Shown here: in pieces, positions 9,857 to 57,649 of the stretch | Position numbering within the stretch: the stretch's first letter is position 1 | Layout of the letters: the number at the start of each line of letters is the position of its first letter | Source of the DNA: Planctomycetota bacterium | GTDB taxonomy: Bacteria > Planctomycetota > Phycisphaerae > UBA1845 | Reading direction: 5' to 3' | Length of the DNA stretch: 64,000 nucleotides | Assembly: GCA_024280855.1 (NCBI GenBank) | Contig: JAJRPG010000084.1 | Span: forward strand, 62,001-126,000 | The notes under the pieces: generated by a model | What the model was told of the DNA's origin: nothing | Seen by the model: the letters and a program-made list of their open reading frames with translations, nothing else | Database searches by the model: none | Program-made: the position numbers and the translations under genes

Positions 9857-11629
9857 ATGTATGCAGAATTCTTCGGACTGCGTGAACTGCCGTTCAACAA
9901 CACACCCGATCCGCGTTTTTTCTACTCGACGCCAGATCATGAAGAAGCTTTAGCCTCTCTTGTATATGCAACGCAAGAGAGAAAGGGCTTTGTGTTGTTA
10001 AGTGGTGAAGTGGGTACGGGAAAAACGCTTGTATCCAGGATGATGTTACGGAATTTTGGTAGCCGCATTGCTTTTGCGAATATCAATCACGTCGTCAACG
10101 GAGCCAGTGACCTTTTAGAATCGGTGTGCGTAGAATTCGAGCTTCCCGTAGAACCACGGTCCAGCCACACGAAAATTGTGCGCGTTCTTCACGACTTTTT
10201 GCTCGCAAAATTCGCCCAGGATGTACCCGTTGTGTTATTGCTGGATGAAGCGCAGAACCTTCCAACAGAGGCATTTGAGCAATTGCGAACTATCGGCAAC
10301 CTAGAGGCTGATGACGCCAAGCTGTTGCAGATTGTGATTGTCGGTCAGCCCGAGCTTCAACAGCGTTTTCAATCGCAAGAATTACGTCAGCTTCGTCAGC
10401 GATTATTTCGAAGTTTTCACCTGAGTTCATTAACCTTAGAGCATACCACAGGGTATATCGAACATAGACTTAGTGTGGTGGGCGCTCCCGATTCAACAAT
10501 TTTTGATCGTGGTGCGGTGGAAATAGTATACCAATACTCACGAGGCCTGCCGCGCGAAATTAATACGATTTGCGATAACGCGATGTTAAGCGCCTATGCT
10601 GCTAACTCGAAAAACATCAGTGCCTCATTTTTGAAAACAGTCGTTGAGCAAATGAACCTTGGTCAGCCTGCTCCAGCGACTACCGCGACAACGACTACCA
10701 ATCCAGTATCAACCGCAGTGCTAGCTAAGCAGTTGGTTTCGCAGCCTGTGACTACGGTCGCTGCGAATGTGCCTGAGCTAAATTCTGGACAAGTCGAATC
10801 TTTGAGCATTCGGCTGGCAGAAATCGAGGGTCGTTTGCAGGCCCAGAAGCAGAGTTCAACAAACGTTTCGAGCCAGGTACACGATGTGTTGTGCGAAGCC
10901 ATGAATCGCAACAAAGAGGACATAGCCAGCATTCGAGGCCAAATGCACACGGACGTACACGAATTGAACCGTCGTATCGCTCAGTCTGAAAAACAAATGA
11001 ATGACACGCGCGGCATCGTAGCCGTGGCTCAAAAGGCGGCCCATGATTTGTCGGCCTTGCTAACCAAAGCTGAGAATTTATCTACATCAATCGATCAGCG
11101 TTCCGAAAGTCTCGATCGGCGGGACACGGACTTAAAGCAAACGGGAATGAAATTCAAACGTGTGATTGGCGAGGTGCGCCGCGTGTTCGATAGGCTGCGA
11201 GTCGTAGCTTCTCAAACCCACGCTGTAGAACGTCGGGCACAGCGCGTATCCGACCAACTAAAATCGCAGACTTCTCAAGCACGCGCGGTTGTTGATGGAC
11301 TGACAAACCATCTTCGTAGCATAGTGCCTGCCAATACGCAGAGCAGTAAATCAGTTCGTATTCTCAAAGAAGCGACGATGCGTAAGGACGAAGTGTTAAC
11401 TCATATGCCCAAATCGCAACCTTTTCAGGCCGATCGAACACGCATGATGGGTATTCTTGATAGCACCCGCGAAAGCGTCTCCGAGTTGCGAGGTCTGGTT
11501 GTCGATCAGTCCCTGGAACGAAAATTGCCTACCCCCAAGATCGGTGGGCAAGATGACGAAAACGAGCCAGTAGTGACTTCTCGTTTAGCCAATGAGGTTG
11601 AAGGCTTGCTCCAAATGATTGAAGACTAA
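9857..11629 (+). CDS. ExeA/GspA-like AAA ATPase with coiled-coil tail, exopolysaccharide locus
   Basis: The 590-residue protein starts MYAEFFGLRELPFNNTPDP, the opening typical of the ExeA-like ATPases found in exosortase/PEP-CTERM exopolysaccharide loci. The Walker A motif is GEVGTGKT (50-57), and Walker B is VVLLLDEAQN (about 124-133). Residues up to about 270 form the AAA module. A Thr/Ala/Pro-rich linker at 271-310 leads to a long region rich in heptad-like segments (about 310-590), predicted to be coiled coil, which most homologues lack or have shorter. No peptidoglycan-binding domain was seen. It is divergent from the export gene and is probably a regulatory or assembly ATPase of polysaccharide secretion. 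The exact role is unknown for the family. Confidence 0.85.
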   Translation: MYAEFFGLRELPFNNTPDPRFFYSTPDHEEALASLVYATQERKGFVLLSGEVGTGKTLVSRMMLRNFGSRIAFANINHVVNGASDLLESVCVEFELPVEPRSSHTKIVRVLHDFLLAKFAQDVPVVLLLDEAQNLPTEAFEQLRTIGNLEADDAKLLQIVIVGQPELQQRFQSQELRQLRQRLFRSFHLSSLTLEHTTGYIEHRLSVVGAPDSTIFDRGAVEIVYQYSRGLPREINTICDNAMLSAYAANSKNISASFLKTVVEQMNLGQPAPATTATTTTNPVSTAVLAKQLVSQPVTTVAANVPELNSGQVESLSIRLAEIEGRLQAQKQSSTNVSSQVHDVLCEAMNRNKEDIASIRGQMHTDVHELNRRIAQSEKQMNDTRGIVAVAQKAAHDLSALLTKAENLSTSIDQRSESLDRRDTDLKQTGMKFKRVIGEVRRVFDRLRVVASQTHAVERRAQRVSDQLKSQTSQARAVVDGLTNHLRSIVPANTQSSKSVRILKEATMRKDEVLTHMPKSQPFQADRTRMMGILDSTRESVSELRGLVVDQSLERKLPTPKIGGQDDENEPVVTSRLANEVEGLLQMIED

Positions 11630-17862: not shown

Positions 17863-18131
17863 AGCCTTTTAGTATGGCTACCTGCACAGATATGCAACCA
17901 TTTCGTTCGTAGGTCACAATTAGGGTTTTGCCCATGCCATATAATGTCGAACCAATAACGGCGTTTAAGCCGTGAAAAGGGGGCTGCGATATTGACATTC
18001 GCTAGCCCGGACCTTATACCATCGTCGGGTTTGCATAGCCTCTACCTCTCTGCGATTCACTCGCCAGGGAGAGGCTGTGCGGATAGAAATCAGCGACGGA
18101 TGGCTTAGGCAAAGATCAGTCGCTGGTGTAT

Positions 18132-18204
18132 GCCGGTGTAGCTCAGTTGGTAGAGCGCCTGACTGTGGATCAGGAGGTCGAGGGTTCAAGTCCCTCCGCT
18201 GGTA
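18132..18204 (+). tRNA. tRNA-His (anticodon GTG)
   Basis: A complete 73-base cloverleaf is present. The acceptor stem is GCCGGTG with CGCTGGT, and the D-arm is GCTC-AGTTGGTA-GAGC. The anticodon arm is CCTGA-CTGTGGA-TCAGG, giving GTG, and the T-arm is GAGGG-TTCAAGT-CCCTC. CCA is not encoded. Position 73 is A, not the C normal for bacterial tRNA-His, and the base before G1 is T, so the usual G-1:C73 pair is absent. Several G:U pairs occur in the acceptor stem. An A73 tRNA-His without G-1 is known from alpha-proteobacteria, where it goes with a divergent HisRS. The hisS gene lies 2.4 kb downstream and looks like that type. Confidence 0.93.
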
Positions 18205-18296
18205 GTTAGAAACGCGGTTAATGGCGAAAACTTGTAGCAGTATCAAGCGCCGTCGCAGGATGGTCGCAGGAATCGACCAAAACCGTCGCAATATCT

Positions 18297-18330
18297 AAGC
18301 CCCTGACCTTGGCTGGTTTGGGGCTTTTTT
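18297..18330 (+). terminator. Intrinsic terminator downstream of tRNA-His
   Basis: AAGCCCC (18297-18303) pairs with GGGGCTT (18320-18326), with a 16-base loop, and is followed by a T-run to 18330. It lies 92 bases past the tRNA-His and probably ends its transcript. Confidence 0.65.
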
Positions 18331-18480
18331 AAATTGACTCTCACACCACCGTTTTGCTACGATGGTTTCCCTATTCTCGATTGCAGCCGCCGTTGCTGGT
18401 ACGGGGAAGCTGGCTAGAAAACTGGAAGGATAGTTGGACACCATTTGAAAAGGTCGGGGCATCGATTACACCATTAAAGA

Positions 18481-19032
18481 CTATAAGCAAATTCCAGCAG
18501 CGACTTTACGCTGCTTAAATCTATTTCCGCCAATCATTACCGCTGCTCCCATGAATATTAATATCCAAGTGGAGGGTTCTGGTACGACTGTGACCAAGAA
18601 GTCTGGACCAGGCTGTGTCAGTATTACGTTATCGCAAATCGGGCAGTCAGCGCCTTGTCCGCCAACGATGCTAATTGAGTAATCCCCAGGAACAACATTA
18701 TCAAGAACACGAATTTCAAATCCGTCTAACAGAACATGTTCGAAGGGACCCACATCATACACGTCATAACTTAACCTAGGTGCATCTGGATTCAAGGCCC
18801 AACTGTCCATTTCAAAAATATATGATTCACTTGCTTGCATCCGTACCCCCAAATAGCCAATGTATTGAGTGGCATCTAAATACAGTGCAGTAGAAAAAGT
18901 TTCTCCCGGCTGCACCGTTATTTCATGGTCAACGAAACTGTTTGAGTTGTTCAGACTTACTACTGGATCATGAATTGAACCCGTTGAAAGAATTGTAATA
19001 GTAAACAGATTCAGCCAATTAATAGCCAGCAC
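18481..19032 (-). CDS. PEP-CTERM sorting domain protein
   Basis: This 183-residue secreted protein ends with a PEP-CTERM tail. It consists of VPEPSTWILIFMGAAVMIGG, a hydrophobic helix, then a basic end (NRFKQRK). The tail targets the protein to an exosortase that cleaves it after export. The start is a GTG with AGGAG six bases upstream. The N-terminus (LAINWLNLFTITILSTGS) is a weak signal peptide without the usual basic residues. The mature domain is beta-rich and acidic, with one CxxC (DCPIC) near residue 130, and no family was recognised. It shows no exosortase gene nearby. The exopolysaccharide genes at 6444-11629 are the closest related locus. Confidence 0.8.
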   Translation of the reverse strand: MLAINWLNLFTITILSTGSIHDPVVSLNNSNSFVDHEITVQPGETFSTALYLDATQYIGYLGVRMQASESYIFEMDSWALNPDAPRLSYDVYDVGPFEHVLLDGFEIRVLDNVVPGDYSISIVGGQGADCPICDNVILTQPGPDFLVTVVPEPSTWILIFMGAAVMIGGNRFKQRKVAAGICL

Positions 19033-19082
19033 GATTGTCTCCTATAAACATTATATGCAGAGTAATCCTGAAATCCACTTAA

Positions 19083-19223
19083 AGTCATCCCCAAGATTGT
19101 AATTCTATTTTGGCTTCGTCCACAGGTCCAGCGACAAGCACCTGGGGGCTGGCTGTATTGCTTCTGCTCATGCTGGGTATAGCTACGTTGGCTTTTCAGC
19201 GTAAACAAGCCTCGCAATCGTAG
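19083..19223 (+). pseudogene. Orphan C-terminal sorting-tail remnant (IPTL-like)
   Basis: A 46-codon frame with no start ends in a stop at 19221. It reads SSTGPATSTWGLAVLLLL followed by MLGIATLAFQRKQASQS. This matches the pattern of C-terminal tails of the IPTL/'STWGLAVLLLL' type: a Trp-Gly pair, a transmembrane helix and a basic end. The rest of the gene is missing; a stop lies directly upstream at 19080-19082. It is therefore a leftover of a decayed exported protein gene, on the opposite strand to the PEP-CTERM gene. The identification is from pattern only. Confidence 0.5.
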
Positions 19224-19440
19224 ACAGCCAATAGCTCAACTAAATCACAGCCCCTGACTTCGATGTGTGGTTATATTGCTGGGGGATGACATTTGGCATG
19301 AATCCGAAAAACTGCCAGCCACTCTCAGCCACCAAAAATCAGTATTACGCACACCTCGGCGAATTTCTTAGATATGGTTTTATGGACTAGAATTCTGATG
19401 CGGGATGTACACAATACGTATTCTGAAACGGGAGAATAGC
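19224..19440. other. Short gene-free stretch before the AlkD-like gene
   Basis: No gene or strong signal was found between the sorting-tail remnant and the AlkD-like gene, apart from a GGGAG ribosome site at 19430-19434. Confidence 0.3.
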
Positions 19441-20154
19441 ATGAACAGCGTCACACAGGTCATGAAGGAACTGAAGAAATGTGGTAGCGAGCAGACGCGC
19501 AAAATCTACGCGCGGCACGGGGCTGGCGACAACGTATTCGGGGTGAAAGCGGCGGACCTGAAAATTATCGCCAAGAAAATTAAGGGGAAGCACGAGCTGG
19601 CGTGCGAACTCTACGAAACTGGGAACTACGATGCGATGTATCTTGCGGGTCTGGTGGCTGACGGAAAACAGATGAGCAAGAAAGAGCTGCACGACTGGGC
19701 TAAGTCGGCTGTGTGGCTGTGGATCTCGGAGTACGCCTTACCTTGGGTGGCGTCGGAAAGCCCGCACGGACGCGACATGGCGATGAAGTGGATAAAGCTT
19801 AAGAAAAAGGAGTCCATCGCGTCGTGTGGATGGAGTACCTATTCCAGTCTGGTGGCTATCACGCCGGATGAGGAGTTGGACTTAGCCGAAATCAAGGCGT
19901 TGTTGAAGCTCGTTGAGAAGGAGATCGATGGTTCAGCCAATCGCGTTAAGTACACGATGAACGGTTTTGTTATCGCCGTGGCGATGTACGTGACGCCGGT
20001 TTTGAAACAGGCTAAGGCGACCGCGAAGAAACTCGGCAAGGTCGAGGTGGATATGGGGGATACTTCGTGCAAAGTACCGCTGGCGTTGGAATACATCGAT
20101 AAGTTGGAGAAGGCGGGTCGGATTGGGAAGAAGCGTAAAACCACGCGGTGTTAG
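19441..20154 (+). CDS. DNA alkylation repair protein (AlkD-like)
   Basis: The 237-residue protein resembles the AlkD/AlkC-like family of HEAT-repeat DNA glycosylases that remove alkylated bases. It has MKELKKCGSEQTRKIYARHG at the start and FGVKAADLKIIAKKIK next, both typical of this family. The HEAT-like helical repeats run through most of the sequence, including the LAGLVADGKQMSKKELHDWA segment. The tail is basic (GKKRKTTRC). ATG at 19441 has GGGAG seven bases upstream; an upstream ATG at 19405 lacks one. Some members of this group have lost glycosylase residues, and the catalytic Asp could not be assigned here. It stands alone before the hisS operon. Confidence 0.8.
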   Translation: MNSVTQVMKELKKCGSEQTRKIYARHGAGDNVFGVKAADLKIIAKKIKGKHELACELYETGNYDAMYLAGLVADGKQMSKKELHDWAKSAVWLWISEYALPWVASESPHGRDMAMKWIKLKKKESIASCGWSTYSSLVAITPDEELDLAEIKALLKLVEKEIDGSANRVKYTMNGFVIAVAMYVTPVLKQAKATAKKLGKVEVDMGDTSCKVPLALEYIDKLEKAGRIGKKRKTTRC

Positions 20155-20617
20155 GGACATTCTCGTTGACCCCATTACATGCGGCATGATCAATTGCGGG
20201 TAAGATATATAGCGATCTGGTTGCGTGGGGAGCCATCGGTCATCAACCGGCTGCTCCGAAGCGGCGTAAAGATCAGATTGGTGCAAGAATTGAGTGGTCA
20301 TAAAGACAGCATGTCTTTACTGAAATTACTATACACACATGCCGTACAATGATAAGGTTGTAGCCATTGCGGAGTTGGCGAAGATTATGGTTGACTCGGT
20401 GCTAACAAAATGACCGATTTGTGGCAGAGGCTAAGCCACTTTTGGACCATTTTAGGCCATGCGTGGCTATAGTAAACGGCTTTTGAGGTGTAAAAACCCC
20501 CACGGTTTTTGTGGTCTAGACCAAATCCGTGCAATGTGATCGCAGGAATCGTTGATGAATTTCCTGTGATATTTTCAGGTAATCACCCCAGGCCTATTCT
20601 TTTGAGGTATTTATCCA
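20155..20617. other. Upstream region of hisS with hairpin and palindrome
   Basis: No gene was found in these 463 bases. Two structures lie about 100 bases before hisS. A seven-base hairpin, AAAAACC (20492-20498) and GGTTTTT (20504-20510), with a five-base loop, is followed immediately by the perfect 12-base palindrome TGGTCTAGACCA (20512-20523). The pair could be a weak terminator plus an operator, or a leader structure controlling hisS. Neither matches a known riboswitch that I recognise. Confidence 0.35.
20512..20523. promoter_or_regulatory. Perfect 12-base palindrome upstream of hisS
   Basis: TGGTCTAGACCA is fully self-complementary and lies 95 bases before the hisS start. A dimeric regulator could bind it. 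No regulator is known, so this is a candidate only. Confidence 0.3.
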
Positions 20618-22051
20618 TTGGATAAGAAAGTAAAGCCGCGGTTGGCACGCGGTCTACAGGACATTCTCCCGGCACAGATGCTGGCTCGGCAGCGGATGAT
20701 CGATGTGATTCGCGGTGTGTACGAGGGGTACGGATTCGTCCCACTGGATACCTCTGCTATCGAATTTATGGACGTGTTAAGTGGGTCGGGTGGAGAAGAG
20801 GCACAGTCTTCGATTTTTCAGGTAGCCAATCCGGATAATCCTGAAATCCCATTGGGGCTTCGGTTTGACTTGACTGTTCCCTTAGCCCGGGTCATCGCTC
20901 AATATGCTGATTTGCCAAGACCTTTCCGACGTTATCAGGTGGCGCCAGTTTGGCGAACGGATAAACCCGGTGCCGGTCGCTTTCGGCAGTTCACCCAATT
21001 CGACTTGGATTCTGTGGGTGTCAAATCAGAAATCGCGGATACCGAAATCATCGCAGCTGTGTGTGACACGTTAGAGGCACTTGACGTAGGCGGGTTTCGT
21101 GTGCGCGTGTCAAGTAGAAAAGTACTCAACCTGCTCATGCCCTTTGCAGATATCCCCACCGAAGCTGCGGCTGATGTCTTCCGCGTGCTAGATAAGCTCG
21201 ACAAGCTTGGTCTTGATAAAGTAAAACTAGAGTTGACTACAGGCTATAAAGATAAATCCGGCGATACGATTCGCGGACTGGGATTGTCATCTGCGCAAGT
21301 ACAAAAAATCGAGCAGTTTCTCGACATCAAAGCCGACAAACGTGATGACGTGCTGGTTCAGATCAAAGAGGCTTTTGCCGGGATTGATGGGGCGGAAAGC
21401 ACTATCGGCGAGTTAGAGAAAATTTCTAATCACCTGAAAGCGTTAGGGTATAACGATGATCGCGTCTCTTTAGACCTCAGCATCGCGCGAGGCTTAGCCT
21501 ACTACACTGGCCCGGTTTTTGAGGCTATCTTGCTCGACGCACCAGAGTTTGGCTCGGTCTGTGGCGGCGGTCGATACGATGACTTAGTCATGCGTTTTCT
21601 AGGAGAACCAGCCCCGGCGACTGGGGCGTCTATTGGCGTGGATCGACTATTAGCTGCGATGGTCCACTTGGATCGTATCAAGATGGTCAAATCGACAGCG
21701 CAGGTGTTAATCACCCGTTTTGATAAAGACCTCACCGACGATTATTTTGCCATGGCCTTTGAGCTACGGCGTGCGGGTGTGCGAACCGAATTATATGTCG
21801 GCACTGCGAAGCGTATGGGCAAACAGCTAAAATATGCCGACCAAACGGAAATTCCGATTGTGGTGATGATGGGGTCGGACGAAAAAGAGAAGGGGACCAT
21901 CACGATCAAAGACCTCGCACAAGGGCGTGAAATGTCCAAAGACATGTCCGGGCATGAGCAGTGGAAGTCTGAACGGCCAGGTCAATTTGAATCCCCGCGA
22001 AGTGAGCTTGTCCAAACTATTAAAAATCTGCTAAAGCAAATCGAGGGCTAA
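20618..22051 (+). CDS. hisS: Histidyl-tRNA synthetase, divergent (alpha-like) type
   Basis: The class II synthetase charges tRNA-His. The 477-residue protein starts at a TTG with GAGG nine bases upstream. It has RGLQDILPAQM at the start, motif 2 RRYQVAPVWRTDKPG...GRFRQFTQFDLDSVG (104-134), the histidine motif SIARGLAYYTG, and motif 3 GASIGVDRL. Common bacterial enzymes read GPMFRxERPQxGRYRQFHQ at motif 2. The version here resembles, from memory, the alpha-proteobacterial enzymes that recognise A73 and need no G-1. The C-terminal anticodon domain is present. The nearby tRNA-His indeed has A73. The next gene, hutH, begins three bases later, so they share an operon. Confidence 0.93.
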   Translation: MDKKVKPRLARGLQDILPAQMLARQRMIDVIRGVYEGYGFVPLDTSAIEFMDVLSGSGGEEAQSSIFQVANPDNPEIPLGLRFDLTVPLARVIAQYADLPRPFRRYQVAPVWRTDKPGAGRFRQFTQFDLDSVGVKSEIADTEIIAAVCDTLEALDVGGFRVRVSSRKVLNLLMPFADIPTEAAADVFRVLDKLDKLGLDKVKLELTTGYKDKSGDTIRGLGLSSAQVQKIEQFLDIKADKRDDVLVQIKEAFAGIDGAESTIGELEKISNHLKALGYNDDRVSLDLSIARGLAYYTGPVFEAILLDAPEFGSVCGGGRYDDLVMRFLGEPAPATGASIGVDRLLAAMVHLDRIKMVKSTAQVLITRFDKDLTDDYFAMAFELRRAGVRTELYVGTAKRMGKQLKYADQTEIPIVVMMGSDEKEKGTITIKDLAQGREMSKDMSGHEQWKSERPGQFESPRSELVQTIKNLLKQIEG

Positions 22052-22054
22052 CCC

Positions 22055-23911
22055 ATGACGCAAAAGGGGGGACATCAGGTAACGCTCGACGGCTCATCGC
22101 TCACCATCGACCAGTTGGTGCGCTTGGCCCGGGACGTGAAAATACAGGTTGTCTGCGATGCAATGGCGTTGGAGAAGGTTAATGAATCTCGTCAGCACAT
22201 TGAAGACATCGTCAAAAACTATACCGAGGCCTATAAGGAAAATGGTGACGGCGGCAATCCAGTGAAGCAGGTTTATGGCGTGACGACGGGTTTTGGCGAG
22301 TTTAAGACGATTCCCATCGCGCCTGCCCAGTTAGAGCAATTGCAGCGTAACATTTTGCTATCCCACGCGGCTGGGATTGGGATCAATTCGGATGCGGATG
22401 ACCCGGCGAATTACTTCCCGGCTGAGGTCGTGCGTGCGACGTTAGTGATTCGGTTGAACACGTTGCTCAAAGGTTACTCTGGCGTTCAGCCTGCACTGCT
22501 GGATTTTATCGTAAATTGTCTTCATGCTGGTGTTATTCCGTTGGTTCCACTGAAAGGGTCGGTTGGTTCCAGTGGCGATTTATGTCCCATGGCGCATATC
22601 TTCGTCACGCTGCTTGGCGAGGGGCGTTTTTATGTGGCGGATCAAGATACAAATCGTCATCCTAGCAGGACTGATTTTCAGCCGGCGTCCAAACTTGCCC
22701 AGGCATTAGGCGTCGAGACATTGCCTCTGCCTGGTTATAAAGATGGCTTAGCTTTAACCAACGGCGCGACAGTCTCAGCTGCGATGTTGGGCATGGCTGT
22801 CCATGATGCCATGTCGTTGGCATCTGTCGCCGACACCGCAGCGGCAATGACGCTGGAAGCTATTTGCGGAAGGACGCGTGCGTTCGATCCTAAAGTTCAT
22901 CTTGCGCGTGGACAGCAGGGGCAAATTGATTGTGCGTCTAATATCCTTTCGATGGTATCGGGCAGCAGCTTGGTCAATCGTTGCGAAGAAGTGCAGGATG
23001 CTTATTCGGTTCGTTGTGCGCCTACCGTTCACGGAGCCAGTCGAGACACGATTGCCTACGCGCGGATGGTTGCCCAGCGGGAAATGAATGCAGCCTGTGA
23101 CAATCCCTTATTTTTCCCGGGTGATTCGCCATGTGATGCGCCGGATGACCCTACGATGCGTGATCCCGCGATGGACTGGGAAGCTTATTCAGTGGGCAAT
23201 TTTCACGGTCAGCCCATTGCCCTAGCCTCAGATTTCCTGGCTATTGCCTTGGCGGAATTGGCCAATATCTCAGAGCGGCGAACGCAGATGTTGTTAGATC
23301 GTAATCATAATCGTAACCTGCCAGCCAACTTAGTCCCCGCGCCAGGGGTGAACTCCGGTTATATGATTACGCAATATAGCGCGGCTAGCTTGGTGTCGGA
23401 AAACAAAGTGCTTGCGCATCCCGCGTCGGTAGATTCCGTGCCGACATCAGCCAATACGGAAGACCATAACGCCATGGCTACTATCGCCGCTCGTAAACTG
23501 CGGACGGTCTTAGCCAATGTTCAGGCGGTCCTGGCGATTGAATTATTGGTCGCAGCACAGGCTATTGAATGGCGGGCCGGTTGCCATATGAAACCCAGCG
23601 TTAAACCAGTCACGGCTGATGCGGACGCCAAAGGGGCGGACGTTGGTGAATATAGAGAGACAAGCTCAAAGTCATTTGCCGAAGCTACTCGTGAAGAAAA
23701 TCGTGGAGAAATCGCGTCACAGCTAGGGGTCGGAACGCGGTCTGCCTACTTGCACATTCGAGAGCTTGTATCGCCCGTTATTGAAGACCGCACACTGGAC
23801 GAAGACATCAGGCTTGTGCGCCAGGCCATCGAGCAAGGCCTCATTTCTGGTGCTATCGACGAGGCACTTCCCAGCGGTTTAGTTCCGATTTCATCCTTGC
23901 AATCTGCTTAG
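22055..23911 (+). CDS. hutH: Histidine/aromatic amino acid ammonia-lyase, MIO triad Ser-Ser-Gly
   Basis: HutH-type enzymes convert histidine to urocanate and ammonia with a self-made MIO cofactor. The 618-residue protein has YGVTTGFGEF, LQRNILLSHAAGIG, with the His selective for histidine or tyrosine, GSVGSSGDLCPMAH, where MIO forms, then QDAYSVRCAPTVHG and HPASVDSVPTSANTEDH. The MIO triad is normally Ala-Ser-Gly; here it is Ser-Ser-Gly, a rare change at the first residue. The protein is about 100 residues longer than usual HAL, with additions in the middle and at the C-terminus. Tyrosine or phenylalanine cannot be excluded as substrate. It follows hisS by three bases, and no other hut gene is nearby. 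Confidence 0.85.
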   Translation: MTQKGGHQVTLDGSSLTIDQLVRLARDVKIQVVCDAMALEKVNESRQHIEDIVKNYTEAYKENGDGGNPVKQVYGVTTGFGEFKTIPIAPAQLEQLQRNILLSHAAGIGINSDADDPANYFPAEVVRATLVIRLNTLLKGYSGVQPALLDFIVNCLHAGVIPLVPLKGSVGSSGDLCPMAHIFVTLLGEGRFYVADQDTNRHPSRTDFQPASKLAQALGVETLPLPGYKDGLALTNGATVSAAMLGMAVHDAMSLASVADTAAAMTLEAICGRTRAFDPKVHLARGQQGQIDCASNILSMVSGSSLVNRCEEVQDAYSVRCAPTVHGASRDTIAYARMVAQREMNAACDNPLFFPGDSPCDAPDDPTMRDPAMDWEAYSVGNFHGQPIALASDFLAIALAELANISERRTQMLLDRNHNRNLPANLVPAPGVNSGYMITQYSAASLVSENKVLAHPASVDSVPTSANTEDHNAMATIAARKLRTVLANVQAVLAIELLVAAQAIEWRAGCHMKPSVKPVTADADAKGADVGEYRETSSKSFAEATREENRGEIASQLGVGTRSAYLHIRELVSPVIEDRTLDEDIRLVRQAIEQGLISGAIDEALPSGLVPISSLQSA

Positions 23912-34215: not shown

Positions 34216-36093
34216 TCATGGATTATCTGATAAATCTACCATCGCAATTAGCTCAGAATCAGACGTAGTTGCCTTGTGATTTGTGAAATACTGCAATGTC
34301 TTACTCGGGATAGTGCGCAGCTTTTCATAAGTCCAGGGTTTTTGAATACTCAAATAAGCCATCGTCCCCGCGACCCCTGTGATTAATAGGAAGGCTGTTA
34401 CCATCACCGGCGCAAGCACCGTGCGACTGAGTAATCGACGACGCCGATCTTGTGACGTGACGATTTCATCAATCGCATCAAGAATGGGAAGCCCCAGGCT
34501 CTTCGCTACATGAGCCGAGCTGCGATATACATGATCGAAAATCTCAGCTAATACAACAAACACGGCACCAGCTGCGATACCCGCCAGGACGGCCAACAAC
34601 AAAATCGTTGTCGATTTCGGATTAACTGGAATACTACTACCGCGAGCAGCTTCGCCTTCTGAAAACTGTAGCAGCCTGCCGTCTTCAATAGCTTCAATAG
34701 CCGGGTCAATTTTTGCAATCATGGAATCAAGTTCACGGCGTCTATTCTGCGCCTTCGCTACTGCCGAATTCGCATCTTCCATCACTTCCTGGTGCTGGAA
34801 AATTCCACTCTTGGCGTCATAAAGTTGTTTTAGCGACGCATCTGTTTTTTCCAAACTAAGATCAATGTCTTTAATCTTGGTGTCTACCGAAGCCATCTGA
34901 ACCTTCAGTCGATTTCGTTCTGCATGCCAGGGAGAGAGTGGGGCACTAAACCTTTGCGCCGATACTGGCTGTCCCGCAATTAGCGCACCACTGGTTACAA
35001 CAACTGTTTGATCCTGCGTGCGCTGAAGGGCTAACTCGTCCTCGATTCTGGCACGCGCCTTAATCAGAGATTGTACCTGCGGATGCTGATCGGTCATTCG
35101 TTTAATGCTGCGTAAATTGACGATTTGCTTGTCAATATCATCCAAATTATTCATGAATTCTACTGTCGCATCACTGACATATTCAACCATCGCAGGTGTA
35201 TCTTTGTCTAATATAGTAGGGCCAACTGGCGCAGGGCCCACCGTAGCCAGGAGTTGGTGAATCTCAGCCTTGGTCGTATCGTAGTCTCGTTTTCGACGCT
35301 GTAGCTCCCGACGTTCCATCTCCAATCGCGCGATGCCGGTTGTGATACTACCCGGATCACTTGGATTAATATGGGGATGATCCATACGCATCTGCGTAGC
35401 AAATCTTCTCGACCCGTTCAAAATCGTTTTTGCTTCAGCTAACTGATCGCCTACATAATCTCGCTGTTGTTTGAGGAAATCGTGAATCCAGATCATCGTG
35501 CGGCGGATGTAAGTTCGTTTCACTTCATCCAGCAGCTTGCAACCAAGTTGGGGGTCAGGGCCTGTATAAGTTAAATGTACGATGTCCAAATGCTTGCTTG
35601 GCGAGGAAGTAGAAACAGATATATGGCTACCCAGGCCTCTGGCTAGCGAGCTTCGACGAGCCAGCGATGTCGTTGTCAGCGTGCCATCTTCGTTTCGCTC
35701 GAACGACTCGGTAAGCTTCATACGATCGACTGTATCAACCATATATTCTGGCGACGTAAGATCGCGGTGCATAGTGCTTCGGAAATATTGGAATGAAGCC
35801 GCGCCCGGTGCATTCGGCAGATTGACAATAATCGGATCGTTACGACGCTCAAAAATTGTTGTCGCGCGATACGTTCGTGGATAGTACAAGCTCATCAAAA
35901 AAGCCGCAGTAGCTACAGTGCAAAACGGTACAAAGAACGCCCACCGATGCGTGACTACAATGCGTAAGATGTCCTGGATGTTCTTTCGGATTTCTGCGAA
36001 CGGGCGATCATCGTCGGTAGATAGCACGTCTGGGCGTCCCATCATGCCAGAGCCCGCGCGACCTTGTCCTAGTTGAGTTTCTGTTCGTGTCAC
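34216..36093 (-). CDS. Wzz/GumC-type polysaccharide chain-length protein
   Basis: The 625-residue protein is predicted to control polymer length and to activate the tyrosine kinase. A GTG at 36093 with GGAG ten bases upstream gives the best start; the open frame extends 26 codons further without support. A first membrane helix lies near residues 50-70 (FFVPFCTVATAAFLM), and the last two near 535-555 and 575-595. Between them is a large, coiled-coil-rich periplasmic region. No kinase domain is fused. It heads the second exopolysaccharide block, about 25 kb from the kinase gene. Similar arrangements occur in PEP-CTERM loci. Confidence 0.88.
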   Translation of the reverse strand: MTRTETQLGQGRAGSGMMGRPDVLSTDDDRPFAEIRKNIQDILRIVVTHRWAFFVPFCTVATAAFLMSLYYPRTYRATTIFERRNDPIIVNLPNAPGAASFQYFRSTMHRDLTSPEYMVDTVDRMKLTESFERNEDGTLTTTSLARRSSLARGLGSHISVSTSSPSKHLDIVHLTYTGPDPQLGCKLLDEVKRTYIRRTMIWIHDFLKQQRDYVGDQLAEAKTILNGSRRFATQMRMDHPHINPSDPGSITTGIARLEMERRELQRRKRDYDTTKAEIHQLLATVGPAPVGPTILDKDTPAMVEYVSDATVEFMNNLDDIDKQIVNLRSIKRMTDQHPQVQSLIKARARIEDELALQRTQDQTVVVTSGALIAGQPVSAQRFSAPLSPWHAERNRLKVQMASVDTKIKDIDLSLEKTDASLKQLYDAKSGIFQHQEVMEDANSAVAKAQNRRRELDSMIAKIDPAIEAIEDGRLLQFSEGEAARGSSIPVNPKSTTILLLAVLAGIAAGAVFVVLAEIFDHVYRSSAHVAKSLGLPILDAIDEIVTSQDRRRRLLSRTVLAPVMVTAFLLITGVAGTMAYLSIQKPWTYEKLRTIPSKTLQYFTNHKATTSDSELIAMVDLSDNP

Positions 36094-36237
36094 TGTTAAT
36101 AATCTCCGTGACGCCGGTAATCGCACGCCGAGTTTCTCGCACATAATTTGTGCAGAGCATCCATATATCAATGTTTTTTCGGACTCAAAACAGTCGCCCT
36201 TGAGGACAAACTTCTGATAATGCTGTGCCGCAAGTGT

Positions 36238-37491
36238 CTATAGGTATGATTGTTCGTCATTACCGGACGTTCCCGCGTATGCCTCGCCATTTGCCGCTTG
36301 TGAAATGGGATATGGGCTTGCAGAATGTGATAAAGCACTTGATGACTTCGTCACAATCGTCACGCCGCCAGGGAACAGGCACCGGCTATAGAATGTTTCA
36401 TAGTTCGCGACCATGCGATTAACATCATACCCCGCAGTCCGCTCACGGGCAGAATATCCCATCGTTTTGCGCAAAGCTCTGCTCGCCGCCAAATTGGCCA
36501 GCCCTGTGGCCATCGCATAAACGCCAGCTTTTTTAAGCACGATGCCATCAATGCCATCTCGCAGAATCAATCCATGATCGCCAACGTCGGTTGTCACGAC
36601 TGGTAAACCGCTAGCCATCGCTTCGAGCATAGCGTTACTGATTCCTTCAGAATGACTACTGCATACATACACATCCAGCGCCGCCAGATTTGATGCTACA
36701 TCCTGACATTGCCCCAGCCAGGTTACATGCGTGTCTATCCCTAAGTGCTTCGCCAGAGCGACCAAAGGCTCACGGCAAGGCCCATCGCCCATAAGTACAA
36801 GTTCAGTTTTCTGCCCCTGTGTCTTAAGAAGTTTAGCGAAGGCTCTCAATAGTAGTTCATGATTTTTGATAGGCGCAAGCGACCCGACGGACCCAATAGT
36901 CAGCGAGTCAGTTGTTAAACCAAGTTGCATCTTAGCTTTGTTTCGTTGGCCTTGGCTAGCCATCGAAAACTTTTTTCGATCAATGCCTGTATGGATTACA
37001 TCTATCCGCTCATTAGGAATGCCAGCTTCGCGCTGAAGTAGATCGCTGCCTGCCTGGGAAACACTGACGAATCGAGCGCCTAAATAATTGGCCATCCGCG
37101 AGATCCATCGGTGACGCCTTGGCAATGCCCCTTGCGTATCCAGACCGTGAAACCCCAGCACCAATTTCACATTCGGATTTAACATCGTAGCTAGTGTGGC
37201 ATCAGCCCAGCAGCATGTGTTTCGCGCGTGAATTAGTGTGCGACATCCGCGTGACAGTCGAGCCAATGAAATAAATGCCGATCGAGATCGACCTTTTTTC
37301 TCCAATGCCCGACAGCTAATATGATCCGGTAGGTAGGCTGCTAAATCGCCGGCTTGCCGTAGCGTCACCACGCTCTGTGCTACACGGGGTAGGTTTAGCT
37401 GCAACAATAACGCCACCATAGAACGCTCCGTGCCACCGCCAGTCAAGCTATGGACCACATGCATTATTCTTGTTGGGGCGTGATTACTCAT
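36238..37491 (-). CDS. Family 4 glycosyltransferase
   Basis: This 417-residue GT-B enzyme starts MSNHAPTRIMHVVHSL followed by TGGGTERSM, the typical loop of GT4 enzymes. The donor half has GSVGSLAPIKNHELLLRA, then LVLMGDGPCREPL, and HSEGISNAMLEAMASGLPVV, the E-x7-E region. ATG at 37491 gives no overlap with the preceding ligase gene (eight bases apart). The longer frame (to 37656) would add an out-of-family N-terminus that overlaps the ligase. Sugar unknown. It follows the ligase gene in the same operon. Confidence 0.88.
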   Translation of the reverse strand: MSNHAPTRIMHVVHSLTGGGTERSMVALLLQLNLPRVAQSVVTLRQAGDLAAYLPDHISCRALEKKGRSRSAFISLARLSRGCRTLIHARNTCCWADATLATMLNPNVKLVLGFHGLDTQGALPRRHRWISRMANYLGARFVSVSQAGSDLLQREAGIPNERIDVIHTGIDRKKFSMASQGQRNKAKMQLGLTTDSLTIGSVGSLAPIKNHELLLRAFAKLLKTQGQKTELVLMGDGPCREPLVALAKHLGIDTHVTWLGQCQDVASNLAALDVYVCSSHSEGISNAMLEAMASGLPVVTTDVGDHGLILRDGIDGIVLKKAGVYAMATGLANLAASRALRKTMGYSARERTAGYDVNRMVANYETFYSRCLFPGGVTIVTKSSSALSHSASPYPISQAANGEAYAGTSGNDEQSYL

Positions 37492-37499
37492 GATGTGCG

Positions 37500-38864
37500 T
37501 TAGTATCCATGACGGAACGCAGGCATGGGAGCCATGTCCCAGTCTTCTATCTGTTGCCTCGCTAGCGCAGGCATTTCGGCCTTTGCAGTCATCTCGCTCA
37601 CAACAATGCGGTGCAGGCAAAGCGGTAGCACGAGAATCCACCAATACGATTCGCATGAAAAACGCTCAGTACCAAGGCCAGCCACAAAATAACTAACCAA
37701 GGACACCAACATGCCATAGACCAATAACTTTGATTTGATGTCTTCTTCCGATTGCGATGCGATTCGATAGCAACGAAATATCAGCCGAAATGATTCCGCG
37801 ATAAGCATGAGGAACAGCAGTCCACCAACAATTCCCAGCTCTGTGAAGCATAGAATTATTGTGTTGTGTGGCGAACGATTTGCATACCGAACATCGTAAC
37901 TACCAATCATTTTCGTAAAATTGCCAAGACCAACGCCTAACGGATAATCGCTCATCATACCAACTGAGGCTAGCCAAATATCGAATCGCGACACGGCTGC
38001 GTAATCTTCCTCAAATGTTTCGGCTTGTGTCAATGTCCCGATTCTTTCCCAATAATGATTGTCCGTCAGTGAAAGTGCCATCAGGCCGCCGATGATTAGC
38101 ATCGCATGAATACGAAACCGTCGCGCACGAGGGGCCATGACAATCGCTGCTAATGCGCCACAAGCTACGCCAATAAACGCTGACCGCGTTCTGCATAATA
38201 CGATAGCATTAACGGTAAAAGCCCCGGAAGCCAGTGCCGCTAATTTCCAGAACCAGGACCGGGTACACATGTAAACCACGCCAATAATGGGTAGCATCGC
38301 CGTCAAGTGAGCCGCAGCCGTCGATGATGTGTTAATGTCAGAACCGCCGAATGATGTAAGTCGTCCTTTCCAGAACGCAGAAGCCGGAGCGGTGTAAGCA
38401 TCATAGCCCATTTGCAAGCTACCAAGTACCAACGTCCAAAGAACCAAGTTTAGATTTCTTCGCGTCGTTGCTAGGCGTGCGATAATGAGTACAAATAGTT
38501 GCAGCTTCCAAAATTTATCAAACGAACCACGAGCAGCAGGACCATAGCCCACGCCAATCAACGTGTTAAGAGTAGCCACCAGCACTAAGCCTATGACGCA
38601 TAATTCCCAAAGCGAAAGTACAGGCCGAACGATAGGAACTTTTCGTCGTCCCGTTAAGAGTCCAACGAGCGTAAAACTAGCCGCTAACATGGAGAAGCGC
38701 ATGCCTATATCTGCCAGCGGCTTGCCCCACCAAGTGACGGGGGGGTTAGACTGATAGGCTGCCATGTAGTTAACAACGCCCCAAATCGGATTGTACAGCG
38801 CAGCCAGGCATCCAAACCAAAACAAAGAGAAATATGCAATTGTTCTCAATGGCCACATGCGCAA
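37500..38864 (-). CDS. O-antigen ligase/Wzy-like polymerase or ligase
   Basis: This 454-residue membrane protein has about ten hydrophobic helices and a large outer loop, RFDIWLASVGMMSDYPLGVG then LGNFTKMIGSYDVRYANRS and PHNTIILCF. The latter 'PHN' block is characteristic of the Wzy_C/WaaL superfamily, and exosortase-associated members are common. It would join or polymerise repeat units at the outer face of the inner membrane. Upstream of its start lie two copies of a 12-base repeat (38926, 38950), candidate operators. The glycosyltransferase gene follows. Confidence 0.85.
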   Translation of the reverse strand: MRMWPLRTIAYFSLFWFGCLAALYNPIWGVVNYMAAYQSNPPVTWWGKPLADIGMRFSMLAASFTLVGLLTGRRKVPIVRPVLSLWELCVIGLVLVATLNTLIGVGYGPAARGSFDKFWKLQLFVLIIARLATTRRNLNLVLWTLVLGSLQMGYDAYTAPASAFWKGRLTSFGGSDINTSSTAAAHLTAMLPIIGVVYMCTRSWFWKLAALASGAFTVNAIVLCRTRSAFIGVACGALAAIVMAPRARRFRIHAMLIIGGLMALSLTDNHYWERIGTLTQAETFEEDYAAVSRFDIWLASVGMMSDYPLGVGLGNFTKMIGSYDVRYANRSPHNTIILCFTELGIVGGLLFLMLIAESFRLIFRCYRIASQSEEDIKSKLLVYGMLVSLVSYFVAGLGTERFSCESYWWILVLPLCLHRIVVSEMTAKAEMPALARQQIEDWDMAPMPAFRHGY

Positions 38865-54033: not shown

Positions 54034-54633
54034 ATGGAAGACGTCTCCCAAATATTGGCCTCAGTCGTTAATGGCGACCAAAACGCAGCTGATGAGTTGC
54101 TTCCTATGGTCTATACGGAGTTACGCAGACTTGCGGAATCGCGGATGGCTAAGGCCAATCCTGGTAATACATTGCAGCCGACGGCGTTGGTTCATGAGGC
54201 GTATATGAGGCTCATCGGTTCGGTTGATCCAGGCTGGAATGGGCGACGTCATTTTTTCGGGGCCGCCGCCCAGGCTATGCGAGATATTCTGGTTGAGCAG
54301 GCACGACGAAAGGCTCGCATTAAGCATGGTGGTGATCGAAAACGGGTCGATGTTGATACCGCAGAGCTAGAAGGCGGTCCCAGGCCTGAGGATGTAATCG
54401 CCGTACATGAAGCCCTTGAACTTTTTGAAAAAGAAGACCCTCGCTGTGCGGAAATTGTAAGATTGCGGTATTTCGCTGGACTGTCTGAGAAAGACATTGC
54501 GTCAGGATTAGACCTATCCGAGCGCACCATTCGTCGAGAGTGGCGATATGCTCGATCCTGGCTTCAGCGGGCGTTGTCTGAGTCGAGCCAAGCAAAGCCT
54601 GGTGGAGATCATTCCAATCATGGATCAAACTAG
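54034..54633 (+). CDS. ECF-family RNA polymerase sigma factor (planctomycete ECF_sub type)
   Basis: The 199-residue sigma factor belongs to the ECF subfamily widespread in planctomycetes. Sigma region 2 is seen in TALVHEAYMRLI and HFFGAAAQAMRDILVEQARR, and region 4 has a helix-turn-helix (GLSEKDIASGLDLSERTIRR, then EWRYARSWLQRAL). ATG at 54034 gives the family-typical opening MEDVSQILASVVNGDQ. A GTG at 53992 would add 14 residues; neither has a strong ribosome site. Its last codons overlap the start of the kinase gene. Such pairs typically act as a signalling unit, with the kinase controlling sigma activity, which is established for some members but not shown here. Confidence 0.92.
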   Translation: MEDVSQILASVVNGDQNAADELLPMVYTELRRLAESRMAKANPGNTLQPTALVHEAYMRLIGSVDPGWNGRRHFFGAAAQAMRDILVEQARRKARIKHGGDRKRVDVDTAELEGGPRPEDVIAVHEALELFEKEDPRCAEIVRLRYFAGLSEKDIASGLDLSERTIRREWRYARSWLQRALSESSQAKPGGDHSNHGSN

Positions 54634-57600
54634 GCGTATCAAAGAACTGTTTCAGCGTGCCTGCGAATTGGATGCGGACGTGCGGTCGAAATTTCTCGAC
54701 GACGCATGCGGGGCTGATGTCGCGCTACGCGCCGAAGTCGATTCATTATTAGCCCACGACGACCAACCGATAGCCGAGCATTTTCGTGTACCGGCCTATG
54801 CACCTCTTGAAACTGATGACGCAGATACATTTTCGAATCACCAATTACCAACGAATATCGGCAGCTTTCGTATCATACGAAAAATTGGTGAAGGCGGCAT
54901 GGGAACCGTATACGAAGCCGAGCAGGAAAAGCCTCGTCGCACGGTTGCCTTAAAGGTCATCCGACCGGGTATAGCTTCGCGTGATATGCTTCGGCGTTTT
55001 GAGCGTGAAGCCCATGTGCTAGGTCAATTGCAACACCCAGGGATAACGCACATTTTCGAAGCTGGCATGGCTAACACACAGCACGGGGAGCAGCCTTACT
55101 TCGCTATGGAGCTAGTTCATGGAGAAACACTTGGCGCATATGTCAAAGGTCATGAGATTGGCACTCGTGAACGTCTTGCTTTGGTCGCTTTAGTGTGTGA
55201 CGCGATTCACCACGCACATCAAAAGGGATTCGTACATCGTGATCTCAAGCCAGGTAATCTTTTAGTCAATGAATCTGGTCAGCCTAAAATTCTGGATTTT
55301 GGCGTGGCTCGCGCGACACATGTAGATCAGAGCGTCACGATGCAGACCGAGGTCGGACAAATTTTGGGAACCATTCCATATATGAGTCCGGAGCAGGTGA
55401 CAGGTCGACCGGATGATTTGGATACCCGTTCCGATGTGTATGCGATGGGCGTCATCCTCTTTGAACTATTAGCGGGAAAGCTACCGTACAACGTGCGAGA
55501 GATGTCAATCCCAGAGGCTACTCGTGTGATACGAGAGGAAGACCCGACAAGGCTCAGTTCTTTAAGAACGGAATTTCGCGGCGATATAGAGATAATAGTT
55601 GCTCGGGCACTAGAAAAAGATCGGGAACGGCGATACGGATCAGCCGCTGAATTCGCAGCAGACATTCGCCGTTACTTGTCGAATCAACCGATCATCGCCC
55701 GACCGCCGAGTACACTCTATCAGTTACGCAAATTCTCAACGAGAAACAGAGCGCTCGTTGGAAGCACGCTAGCCGTGTTTTTGGCCGTGATTGCTGGGGC
55801 GGTAGTATCAGTCGATTTTGCACTGAGTGAAGCGAAGGCGCGCGTAACGGCTGAGGCTCAAGCCAGTCGCGCTAGGAAAATCTCGACATTTCTGACAGAT
55901 ATGCTTCGTCAGGTCGAACCTTCTGAAGCACAGGGCGAAAAAGTTACTGTTCGGGAGGTACTAGACGCATCAGCGAGCGGCATCGGCGATATTTTTGACG
56001 GCGAATCAGAAGTCGAGGCGGCCATTCGATATACCATCGGAAGTGTATATGTGCGTCTTGGCGAATACGATCGTGCGGAGCCCATGTTGCTACGCGCGTT
56101 AGACCTACGCCGAAAAGAACTCGAATACGAAAGTATTGATACGGTCAATATTCTTAACGATTTGGGGTCGCTTCGACTCGCTCATGGGAAACGTGAAGAA
56201 GCGCTCCGGCTCTATGAAGAGGCGGTGACGTTGTCTAAAAAGACCACCGGCCTGGATAGTGCTGCCACGCTAACGACACTTGAGTATGTGGGCGATGCGC
56301 TACGGGAACTCGGCAGGCTAGATGAGGCCAGAGATATCATTAATGAAGTCATAGAAGGACGTCATAAGCTTTACGGCCCAGATCACGAGAAAATTATTTC
56401 TGCGAACCACAATCTTGGCATCATTTTGATCGGTCTTGGAGAATACGCTGAAGCGGAAGTCATTTTGACCGATGCATTAGCTGGAATTCGGAAATATCAC
56501 GGCTTACGTCACCCTAAGACAGCGATGGCACTACAGAATCTTACTTACGCCATGACGTCGAACGGGCGATTCAAAGAGGCTGAACCATTCGCTCGTGAAT
56601 GCGTGGAAGTTAATAGAATTTTATACGGCGACAATAATTCCAAAGTTGCTGATGCGCTAGGCAAGCAGGCCAATGTCTTGCAAAAACTAGGTAATTACGT
56701 TGAAGCAGAATCCATACTACGAGAAGCGATTGAAATACAAGAGCATGTTAAAGGAGCGGACCCGATGACGATCACTCGTTTGCTGGTTATGCTTTCTGAT
56801 CAGCTTTATCATCAGGATCGTTTTCAAGAAGCTGAGAAGTTGCAACGTCGAGGGATTACATACTATGAATCACTGGCAGAACCAGATACAGCGGATCATG
56901 CGTGGGCCATCCATTCACTCACGATAAACCTTGTGAAGCAGAAACGTTTCGATGAGGCCGAGCCTTTACAGCGCAACGCCGTCAGGATGATGCGCAAAGT
57001 TAAGGGGAACGATCATCCTTCGACAACTATCGTGATGAGTAACCTTGGGAATATCATGCACCGGAAGGGTGATCTGATTGCCTCCGCTCGAATTACGCAA
57101 GAAGTTTATGAATCCCAGGTTCGACTGCTTGGAGAAGACCATCCTGAAGTTACCGTGGCTATGATGAATTTGGGTACGGTCAAATGGAAAGCTGGCGACC
57201 CTGGTTCGGCTGAGACGCTAGTGCGTAGTGCCCTCAAGCGATTCCGCAAAGAACGCGGCGATGAACATCCTTATGTCACCTATGCCATGGGAAATCTGGC
57301 CGGAATCTGCTCCGAACAAAAAAATTATGACGAAGCAACCCAACTTCGACGGGACGTGCTAGAGCGAAAACGGGAACAGTATGGCAACGAGCATCAGAAG
57401 ACTGCCATCGCCGAAGGGAAACTCGGTGAAGTACTTAGAAAACGGGGCGATGCCCATGGCGATCGTAACGATTTTGAAGAGGCCGAGACGCTGCTACTTA
57501 ATAGCCACGCCTATCTGTCAGCCAATTTGCCCACTGACGATGGACGTGTAAAAAGTGCTGCTGAGAGGCTTGCCAATCTATATATCGCATGGGGCCGTCC

Positions 57601-57649
57601 AGAAGAAGCAACGACGTGGCAGAACGGGAACAGCCCATCGACACCATGA
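54620..57649 (+). CDS. PknB-type Ser/Thr protein kinase with C-terminal TPR repeats
   Basis: The 1,009-residue protein has a complete kinase domain at about residues 80-360. It has the loop GEGGMGTVYEA, VALKV with the ATP lysine, HRDLKPGNLLV, DFGVARATH and YMSPEQ. One membrane helix follows at about residue 390-412 (ALVGSTLAVFLAVIAGAVV). The outer part carries about a dozen TPR-like repeats, for example SVYVRLGEYDRAEPMLLRAL and ANVLQKLGNYVEAESILREA. ATG at 54620 overlaps the sigma gene by 14 bases, so translation is coupled. TPRs face the outside and could sense a ligand or protein. The neighbouring, divergent surface protein is a plausible target of the sigma factor. Confidence 0.93.
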   Translation: MDQTRRIKELFQRACELDADVRSKFLDDACGADVALRAEVDSLLAHDDQPIAEHFRVPAYAPLETDDADTFSNHQLPTNIGSFRIIRKIGEGGMGTVYEAEQEKPRRTVALKVIRPGIASRDMLRRFEREAHVLGQLQHPGITHIFEAGMANTQHGEQPYFAMELVHGETLGAYVKGHEIGTRERLALVALVCDAIHHAHQKGFVHRDLKPGNLLVNESGQPKILDFGVARATHVDQSVTMQTEVGQILGTIPYMSPEQVTGRPDDLDTRSDVYAMGVILFELLAGKLPYNVREMSIPEATRVIREEDPTRLSSLRTEFRGDIEIIVARALEKDRERRYGSAAEFAADIRRYLSNQPIIARPPSTLYQLRKFSTRNRALVGSTLAVFLAVIAGAVVSVDFALSEAKARVTAEAQASRARKISTFLTDMLRQVEPSEAQGEKVTVREVLDASASGIGDIFDGESEVEAAIRYTIGSVYVRLGEYDRAEPMLLRALDLRRKELEYESIDTVNILNDLGSLRLAHGKREEALRLYEEAVTLSKKTTGLDSAATLTTLEYVGDALRELGRLDEARDIINEVIEGRHKLYGPDHEKIISANHNLGIILIGLGEYAEAEVILTDALAGIRKYHGLRHPKTAMALQNLTYAMTSNGRFKEAEPFARECVEVNRILYGDNNSKVADALGKQANVLQKLGNYVEAESILREAIEIQEHVKGADPMTITRLLVMLSDQLYHQDRFQEAEKLQRRGITYYESLAEPDTADHAWAIHSLTINLVKQKRFDEAEPLQRNAVRMMRKVKGNDHPSTTIVMSNLGNIMHRKGDLIASARITQEVYESQVRLLGEDHPEVTVAMMNLGTVKWKAGDPGSAETLVRSALKRFRKERGDEHPYVTYAMGNLAGICSEQKNYDEATQLRRDVLERKREQYGNEHQKTAIAEGKLGEVLRKRGDAHGDRNDFEEAETLLLNSHAYLSANLPTDDGRVKSAAERLANLYIAWGRPEEATTWQNGNSPSTP

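What the first reader, a model, noticed from the sequence alone, without database searches (positions are those of the whole stretch)
18132..22051. tRNA-His with A73 and no G-1, near a divergent alpha-type HisRS
The tRNA-His ends in A73 with T before G1, so it lacks the G-1:C73 pair that most bacterial HisRS enzymes require. The hisS gene 2.4 kb away has a motif 2 with RRYQVAPVWRTDKPG and FTQFDLDSVG. That is unlike the common bacterial type, and like the alpha-proteobacterial enzymes known to accept A73 without G-1. This looks like a co-evolved or jointly transferred tRNA/synthetase pair outside the Proteobacteria.
Basis: partly seen in the sequence, partly recalled or inferred. Interest (0 to 1): 0.7.

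Follow-up and report, generated by a model that had tools for sequence, protein, structure and literature searches.

The report
Transferred histidine tRNA and charging enzyme
A planctomycete has replaced its own histidine tRNA and charging enzyme with a matched pair that lacks an almost universal extra G, apparently acquired from Acidobacteriota as linked genes, so a trait described in bacteria only from alphaproteobacteria also occurs in other phyla and can move between them.

Summary
Confirmed. The genome's only tRNA-His (18132-18204) has A73, G1·U72 and T at -1; its only hisS (20618-22051) encodes a HisRS of the G-1-independent ("alpha-type") clade. No Thg1, no second pair. In 93 genomes where I paired HisRS with tRNA-His, 43 tRNAs have A73+U72 and 50 have C73+G-1, and HisRS type matches in 93/93. 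All bacterial A73 enzymes form one clade (100/100). Alphaproteobacteria are one tip group in it, beside Planctomycetota. The window and two sister MAGs nest within Acidobacteriota (97/84), although the contig backbone (SMC) is Phycisphaerae and all 37 class-mates read have C73/G-1. In the sisters tRNA-His lies directly upstream of hisS, and a histidine ammonia-lyase (HAL) gene follows 3 nt later; the nearest Acidobacteriota have the same three-gene order and share nothing else nearby. Best reading: a linked block was transferred and displaced the resident system; a 2.3-kb insertion later split it in the window. tRNA sequence alone does not settle co-transfer. The biochemistry is that known from Caulobacter; distribution and linkage are new relative to the literature I could search. 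Charging was not tested.

The parts
18132..18204 (+). tRNA-His(GTG), G1.U72, C2:G71, A73, T at -1 (18131), no encoded CCA; the genome's only tRNA-His
20618..22051 (+). hisS, 477-aa HisRS of the A73/G-1-independent clade; the genome's only hisS
20954..20992 (+). motif 2 loop RTDKPGAGRFRQF (residues 113-125); PQK/PQR of C73 types replaced by PGA
21236..21277 (+). insertion-domain segment (about residues 207-220, G..D.SGD...G), present in all 43 A73-type and essentially absent from C73-type HisRS; predicted beta-hairpin
21938..22048 (+). C-terminal extension (residues 441-477) with Gln456, which is invariant in A73 types and absent from C73 types
22055..23911 (+). histidine ammonia-lyase-like gene (HAL/hutH family), 3 nt after hisS; part of the shared block
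18205..20501 (.). 2.3-kb insertion that separates tRNA-His from hisS in the window only; absent from both sister genomes

Best explanation
This is the genome's only histidine-charging system. It works by the rule worked out for Caulobacter: RNase P makes a tRNA-His without an extra 5' G, and a divergent HisRS identifies it by A73, U72 and the GUG anticodon, so neither G-1 nor a tRNA-His guanylyltransferase is needed. The ancestor of the window and its two sister MAGs acquired hisS with tRNA-His and the downstream HAL gene as one linked block from Acidobacteriota, and lost the C73/G-1 pair found in all other Phycisphaerae read. In the window a 2.3-kb insertion later separated tRNA and hisS. Shown by computation: sequence features, single copy, covariation, tree placement, shared gene order. 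Inferred: charging activity, the mature 5' end, one joint transfer event, its direction.
For: Sole pair, no Thg1. 43 A73 tRNAs all with G1.U72 and C2:G71, 50 C73 tRNAs all with G-1 and none with U72; HisRS type agrees with base 73 in 93/93. A73 enzymes one clade 100/100; window clade inside Acidobacteriota, 97/84 and 95/91, within a 100/100 group; Acidobacteriota without the window clade rejected, AU p 0.032. Contig backbone is Phycisphaerae by SMC, and 37 of 37 class-mate tRNAs read are C73/G-1. Same tRNA-His-hisS-HAL order in L004, L005 and in Acidobacteriota G453, G466 and G495, with no other shared ORF. U72, A73 and anticodon are the measured Caulobacter elements (PMC9976931).
Against: No biochemistry. 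The tRNA bodies of the two closest Acidobacteriota (L305, L306) are only 78-80% identical to the window's, no more than class-mates (median 79%, maximum 85%), so tRNA sequence does not prove co-transfer. AU p values are near 0.03 and the groups were named after seeing the tree. hisS-HAL adjacency also occurs next to some C73-type hisS (L312, L316, L321). The genome is a 96% complete draft.
Confidence: 0.75

Rival explanations
1. Only hisS (perhaps with HAL) was transferred; the resident tRNA-His then adapted in place from C73/G-1 to A73/U72, as Ardell and Andersson proposed for alphaproteobacteria.
For: The tRNA body of the window is not especially close to that of the nearest Acidobacteriota (78-80%). 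That route was proposed for the alphas (from memory of the 2006 paper; PMC3937112 speaks of HGT of a HisRS perturbing tRNAs).
Against: tRNA-His sits directly upstream of hisS on the same strand in both sister MAGs and in the closest Acidobacteriota, which would need independent relocation of the resident tRNA. Bodies of Bryobacterales and planctomycete A73 tRNAs are 86-97% identical to the window's, above the class-mate maximum of 85%.
Confidence: 0.2
2. The mature tRNA keeps an extra 5' nucleotide, U-1 paired to A73, and HisRS reads that eighth pair instead of doing without it.
For: T at -1 in the window and in 34 of 43 A73 genes; ARAGORN draws the extra pair.
Against: -1 is G, C or A in 9 of 43 A73 genes. 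In alphaproteobacteria RNase P removes N-1 (PMC6471195). U at -1 is also a common RNase P preference (own knowledge).
Confidence: 0.08
3. The pair sits on a misbinned or chimeric contig and does not belong to this genome.
For: All three genomes carrying it appear to be MAGs.
Against: The contig carries a Phycisphaerae-like SMC; two independently named MAGs hold the genes in the same context over about 20 kb; the Acidobacteriota loci share only the three genes; no other pair exists in the genome.
Confidence: 0.02
4. Origin from alphaproteobacteria by transfer.
For: Same enzyme clade and same tRNA rule.
Against: HisRS is 65-68% identical to Acidobacteriota but about 42-44% to alphas; alphas form a separate 100/100 tip group beside Planctomycetota.
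Confidence: 0.01

Closest known systems
Alphaproteobacterial G-1-less tRNA-His / divergent HisRS pair (RRCH clade; Caulobacter crescentus studied in vitro)
   Same: A73, U72, no G-1 gene-encoded, no Thg1; HisRS of the same clade with the Gly motif 2 loop.
   Different: Different phylum and a separate branch of the clade, nested in Acidobacteriota; tRNA and hisS linked in the lineage, with a HAL gene; no alpha locus examined has the tRNA next to hisS (0 of 48).
A73-type pairs of Acidobacteriota (Bryobacterales and relatives; G453, G466)
   Same: Closest HisRS (60-68% identity), same tRNA rule; G453 and G466 have the same tRNA-His-hisS-HAL order.
   Different: tRNA body only 78-80% identical in G453 and G466; HAL MIO triad ASG there, SSG in the window clade. 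I found no paper describing these pairs.
G-1-independent HisRS of Trypanosoma brucei and Acanthamoeba castellanii
   Same: Histidylation without G-1 (PMC9976931, PMC6471195).
   Different: Eukaryotic enzymes not included in my trees; human HisRS lies outside the bacterial A73 clade (AU p 0.037, long branch).
Common bacterial C73/G-1 system (E. coli HisRS)
   Same: Class II HisRS fold family.
   Different: C73, G-1, PQK motif 2 loop, no insertion hairpin, no C-terminal extension; far in the tree.

Membership tests
G-1-independent A73/U72 HisRS-tRNA-His pair (Caulobacter type) | tRNA-His with A73 and no encoded G-1 | tested here: met
   T at 18131, A73 at 18204
G-1-independent A73/U72 HisRS-tRNA-His pair (Caulobacter type) | U72 (G1.U72 pair) | tested here: met
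   U72 at 18203; present in 43/43 A73 tRNAs, 0/50 C73 tRNAs
G-1-independent A73/U72 HisRS-tRNA-His pair (Caulobacter type) | HisRS in one clade with alphaproteobacterial A73 enzymes | tested here: met
   100/100 support
G-1-independent A73/U72 HisRS-tRNA-His pair (Caulobacter type) | Gly in place of Gln at motif IIb position 123 | tested here: met
   PGA in window; but Bryobacterales A73 enzymes have D/H/Q there, so the residue is not strictly diagnostic
G-1-independent A73/U72 HisRS-tRNA-His pair (Caulobacter type) | No tRNA-His guanylyltransferase and no second C73 pair in the genome | tested here: met
   (draft genome, 96% complete)
G-1-independent A73/U72 HisRS-tRNA-His pair (Caulobacter type) | Charging in vitro of tRNA without G-1 | not testable with these tools
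   needs aminoacylation assay
Pair derived from alphaproteobacteria | Window HisRS nested among alphaproteobacterial enzymes | tested here: not met
   alphas are a separate 100/100 tip clade beside Planctomycetota
Common bacterial C73/G-1 pair | G-1:C73 in tRNA-His | tested here: not met
   T-1, A73
Histidine ammonia-lyase (downstream gene) | hutH profile above curated cutoff | tested here: inconclusive
   TIGR01225 515 bits, below its cutoff of 539; subfamily NF006871 534, above its 524; MIO triad SSG instead of ASG

The most novel reading that the evidence does not exclude
A self-contained tRNA-His-hisS(-HAL) block moves between bacterial phyla and replaces the host's histidine identity rule in one step, because tRNA and enzyme are linked and probably orthogonal to the resident pair. 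The alphaproteobacterial A73 system, taken as a once-only bacterial trait from a eukaryotic-like HisRS, would be one branch of a family spread through Planctomycetota, Acidobacteriota and Hydrogenedentota.
Probability: 0.55. Interest if true: 0.72.

Novelty: new member of a known kind. Interest (0 to 1): 0.6.

Why it matters
Loss of G-1 with A73 has been used as a marker of one alphaproteobacterial clade, for example to place SAR11, and described as having likely arisen only once in bacteria (PMC3937112); the reviews I could read, up to 2023, name only alphaproteobacteria among bacteria. Here the same enzyme clade and tRNA rule occur in Planctomycetota, Acidobacteriota, Hydrogenedentota, an Omnitrophota and an Abditibacteriaceae genome, often with linkage that would make joint transfer easy. 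The marker is therefore transferable, and the alpha enzymes sit nearest to planctomycete ones rather than to the human enzyme. The family also offers many natural tRNA/enzyme pairs for orthogonal histidine charging.

Tried and rejected
(1) My first tRNA-His pattern had a wrong anticodon-loop spacing and missed even the window's tRNA; corrected. (3) Reading E. coli HisRS by a recalled N-terminus failed, and the first joint alignment run timed out; a faster setting was used. (4) Ardell & Andersson 2006, Wang et al. 2007 and Yuan et al. 2011 are not held; what I use of them comes through PMC3937112, PMC9976931, PMC3875453, PMC6471195, or is marked as memory. (5) Gly123 as the diagnostic residue: rejected, Bryobacterales A73 enzymes have D/H/Q. 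(6) tRNA body similarity as proof of co-transfer: rejected, the nearest Acidobacteriota tRNAs are no closer than class-mates. (7) Alphaproteobacterial donor, second pair, binning error: rejected. (8) The 2.4-kb spacing as a sign of weak linkage: rejected after seeing the sister genomes.

Full report
Observation. The window is part of a 145-kb contig of a planctomycete genome (G000; 4.56 Mb, 112 contigs, 96% complete). The tRNA-His at 18132-18204 reads GCCGGTG...CGCTGGTA: G1.U72, C2:G71, A73, T at -1, no encoded CCA. The hisS gene at 20618-22051 is a full-length HisRS.

Is it the only pair? One hisS and one tRNA-His by pattern. Typing the genome's tRNA hits gave one His; 44 of 45 hits were typed and the last is a fragment at a contig end. 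No Thg1 match at E <= 1. The genome is a draft, so a missing second copy is unlikely but not excluded.

Covariation. I paired HisRS and tRNA-His in 93 genomes from Planctomycetota, Acidobacteriota, Hydrogenedentota, Omnitrophota and Alphaproteobacteria. In 43 the tRNA has A73, always with G1.U72 and C2:G71; the base at -1 is T (34), G (4), C (3) or A (2). In 50 it has C73, always with G-1 and never U72. HisRS type, defined by R326, D212 and G215, agrees with base 73 in 93 of 93. Those residues were chosen from the same alignment, so this describes the data rather than testing it independently. The A73 enzymes also share an inserted segment (about residues 207-220, a predicted beta-hairpin) and a C-terminal extension with an invariant Gln456. 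U72 and A73 plus the anticodon are the identity elements measured for Caulobacter (PMC9976931).

Phylogeny. In an 80-row tree (IQ-TREE, LG+C20+F+G4 PMSF) all bacterial A73 enzymes form one clade, 100/100. The alphaproteobacteria are one 100/100 tip group beside Planctomycetota. The window and two other MAGs (Phycisphaerae OFTM182, 91% identical; Planctomycetota Dive96_bin2.90, 89%) are sister to two Acidobacteriota enzymes (97/84; 95/91 in an A73-only tree) inside a 100/100 group that is otherwise Acidobacteriota. Forcing eight Acidobacteriota rows together without the window clade is rejected (AU p 0.032). Adding the human enzyme to the A73 clade is weakly rejected (p 0.037), but it is a long branch and the only eukaryotic sequence used, so the eukaryotic-source question stays open.

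The gene history conflicts with the organism history. In the window's class the other 40 sampled genomes give only weak matches to this HisRS; the 16 of them whose HisRS is in the 93 pairs are all of the other type, and 37 class-mate tRNAs read are all C73/G-1. SMC from the same contig is 89% and 78% identical to the two sister MAGs, then up to 41% to other Phycisphaerae and 31-32% to the Acidobacteriota with the closest HisRS. HisRS shows the reverse: 65-68% to Acidobacteriota. The gene was therefore acquired, and misbinning is unlikely. At least 15 of 392 Planctomycetota genomes and 6 of 199 Acidobacteriota genomes have the type.

The linked block. In the sister MAGs tRNA-His ends 128 and 37 nt upstream of hisS on the same strand, and a histidine ammonia-lyase (HAL) gene starts 3 nt after hisS. 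In the window 2297 bp (18205-20501), absent from both sisters, separate tRNA and hisS, so the spacing is secondary. In Acidobacteriota G453 and G466 the order is again tRNA-His, hisS, HAL, and no other window ORF between 8000 and 36000 matches the 16-18 kb around them. G495 has the same three genes at lower identity; G498 has tRNA-His-hisS. Among non-alpha A73-type loci with enough flank, 12 of 46 have tRNA-His directly upstream of hisS; none of 67 C73-type loci does (Fisher p 8e-6, not corrected for relatedness). tRNA-His-hisS also occurs in Omnitrophota (L040), Hydrogenedentota (L020), Abditibacteriaceae (L016) and other Planctomycetota (G107, G123, G124).

Did the tRNA travel with the enzyme? 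Gene order says yes. tRNA sequence is undecided: over positions 8-65 the window's tRNA is 86-90% identical to most Bryobacterales tRNAs and 97% to planctomycete G124, but only 78-80% to G453 and G466, whose enzymes are closest; class-mates have a median of 79% and a maximum of 85%. I put co-transfer at about three in four, with in-place adaptation of the resident tRNA as the main rival.

How it works. By homology to the Caulobacter pair, RNase P trims the precursor at G1, no 5' G is kept or added, and HisRS reads A73, U72 and the anticodon. None of this was measured in these organisms. A retained U-1 paired to A73 cannot be excluded from sequence, but -1 is not conserved across the family.

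Novelty. The papers I could search describe this system in bacteria only from alphaproteobacteria (PMC9976931, PMC6471195, PMC3875453; [quoted passage not shown] Searches aimed at Acidobacteria or Planctomycetes found nothing relevant. The library lacks many subscription papers, so an earlier mention cannot be ruled out. The mechanism is known; the distribution, the linked block and the acidobacterial source for this lineage are what is new.

Noticed in passing
window 22055-23911; L004, L005, L371, L372: HAL-like gene 3 nt after hisS. Its MIO-forming triad reads SSG in the window and both sister MAGs, but ASG in the Acidobacteriota G453 and G466 (loci L305, L306). hisS-HAL adjacency is also seen next to some C73-type acidobacterial hisS. 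Why hisS and HAL are neighbours is unexplained.
   Followed up: partly
window 18205-20501: 2.3-kb insertion beginning at the 3' end of tRNA-His, with an imperfect 15-nt direct repeat (18261-18275 and 20537-20551) near its ends. It holds a DNA-alkylation-repair-like gene (19405-20154) and a short reading frame (18481-19032, minus) with a PEP-CTERM-like end; I saw no integrase.
   Followed up: partly
L258, L188, L263, L264: Four A73/U72 tRNA-His genes have G at -1. If RNase P kept it there, G-1 would face A73, as in eukaryotes.
   Followed up: no
L253, L254, L255 (genomes G047, G022, G265): Planctomycete family f30 has C73 tRNA-His whose first pair is C1:G72 instead of G1:C72, still with G at -1.
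   Followed up: no
window 9857-11629 and 34216-38864: Exosortase (XrtA/PEP-CTERM) system-like genes: ATPase, chain-length determinant, glycosyltransferase and O-glycosylation ligase.
   Followed up: no
window 54548-57649: 1033-aa protein with a Ser/Thr kinase domain followed by a part matching an FxSxx tetratricopeptide-repeat family.
   Followed up: no
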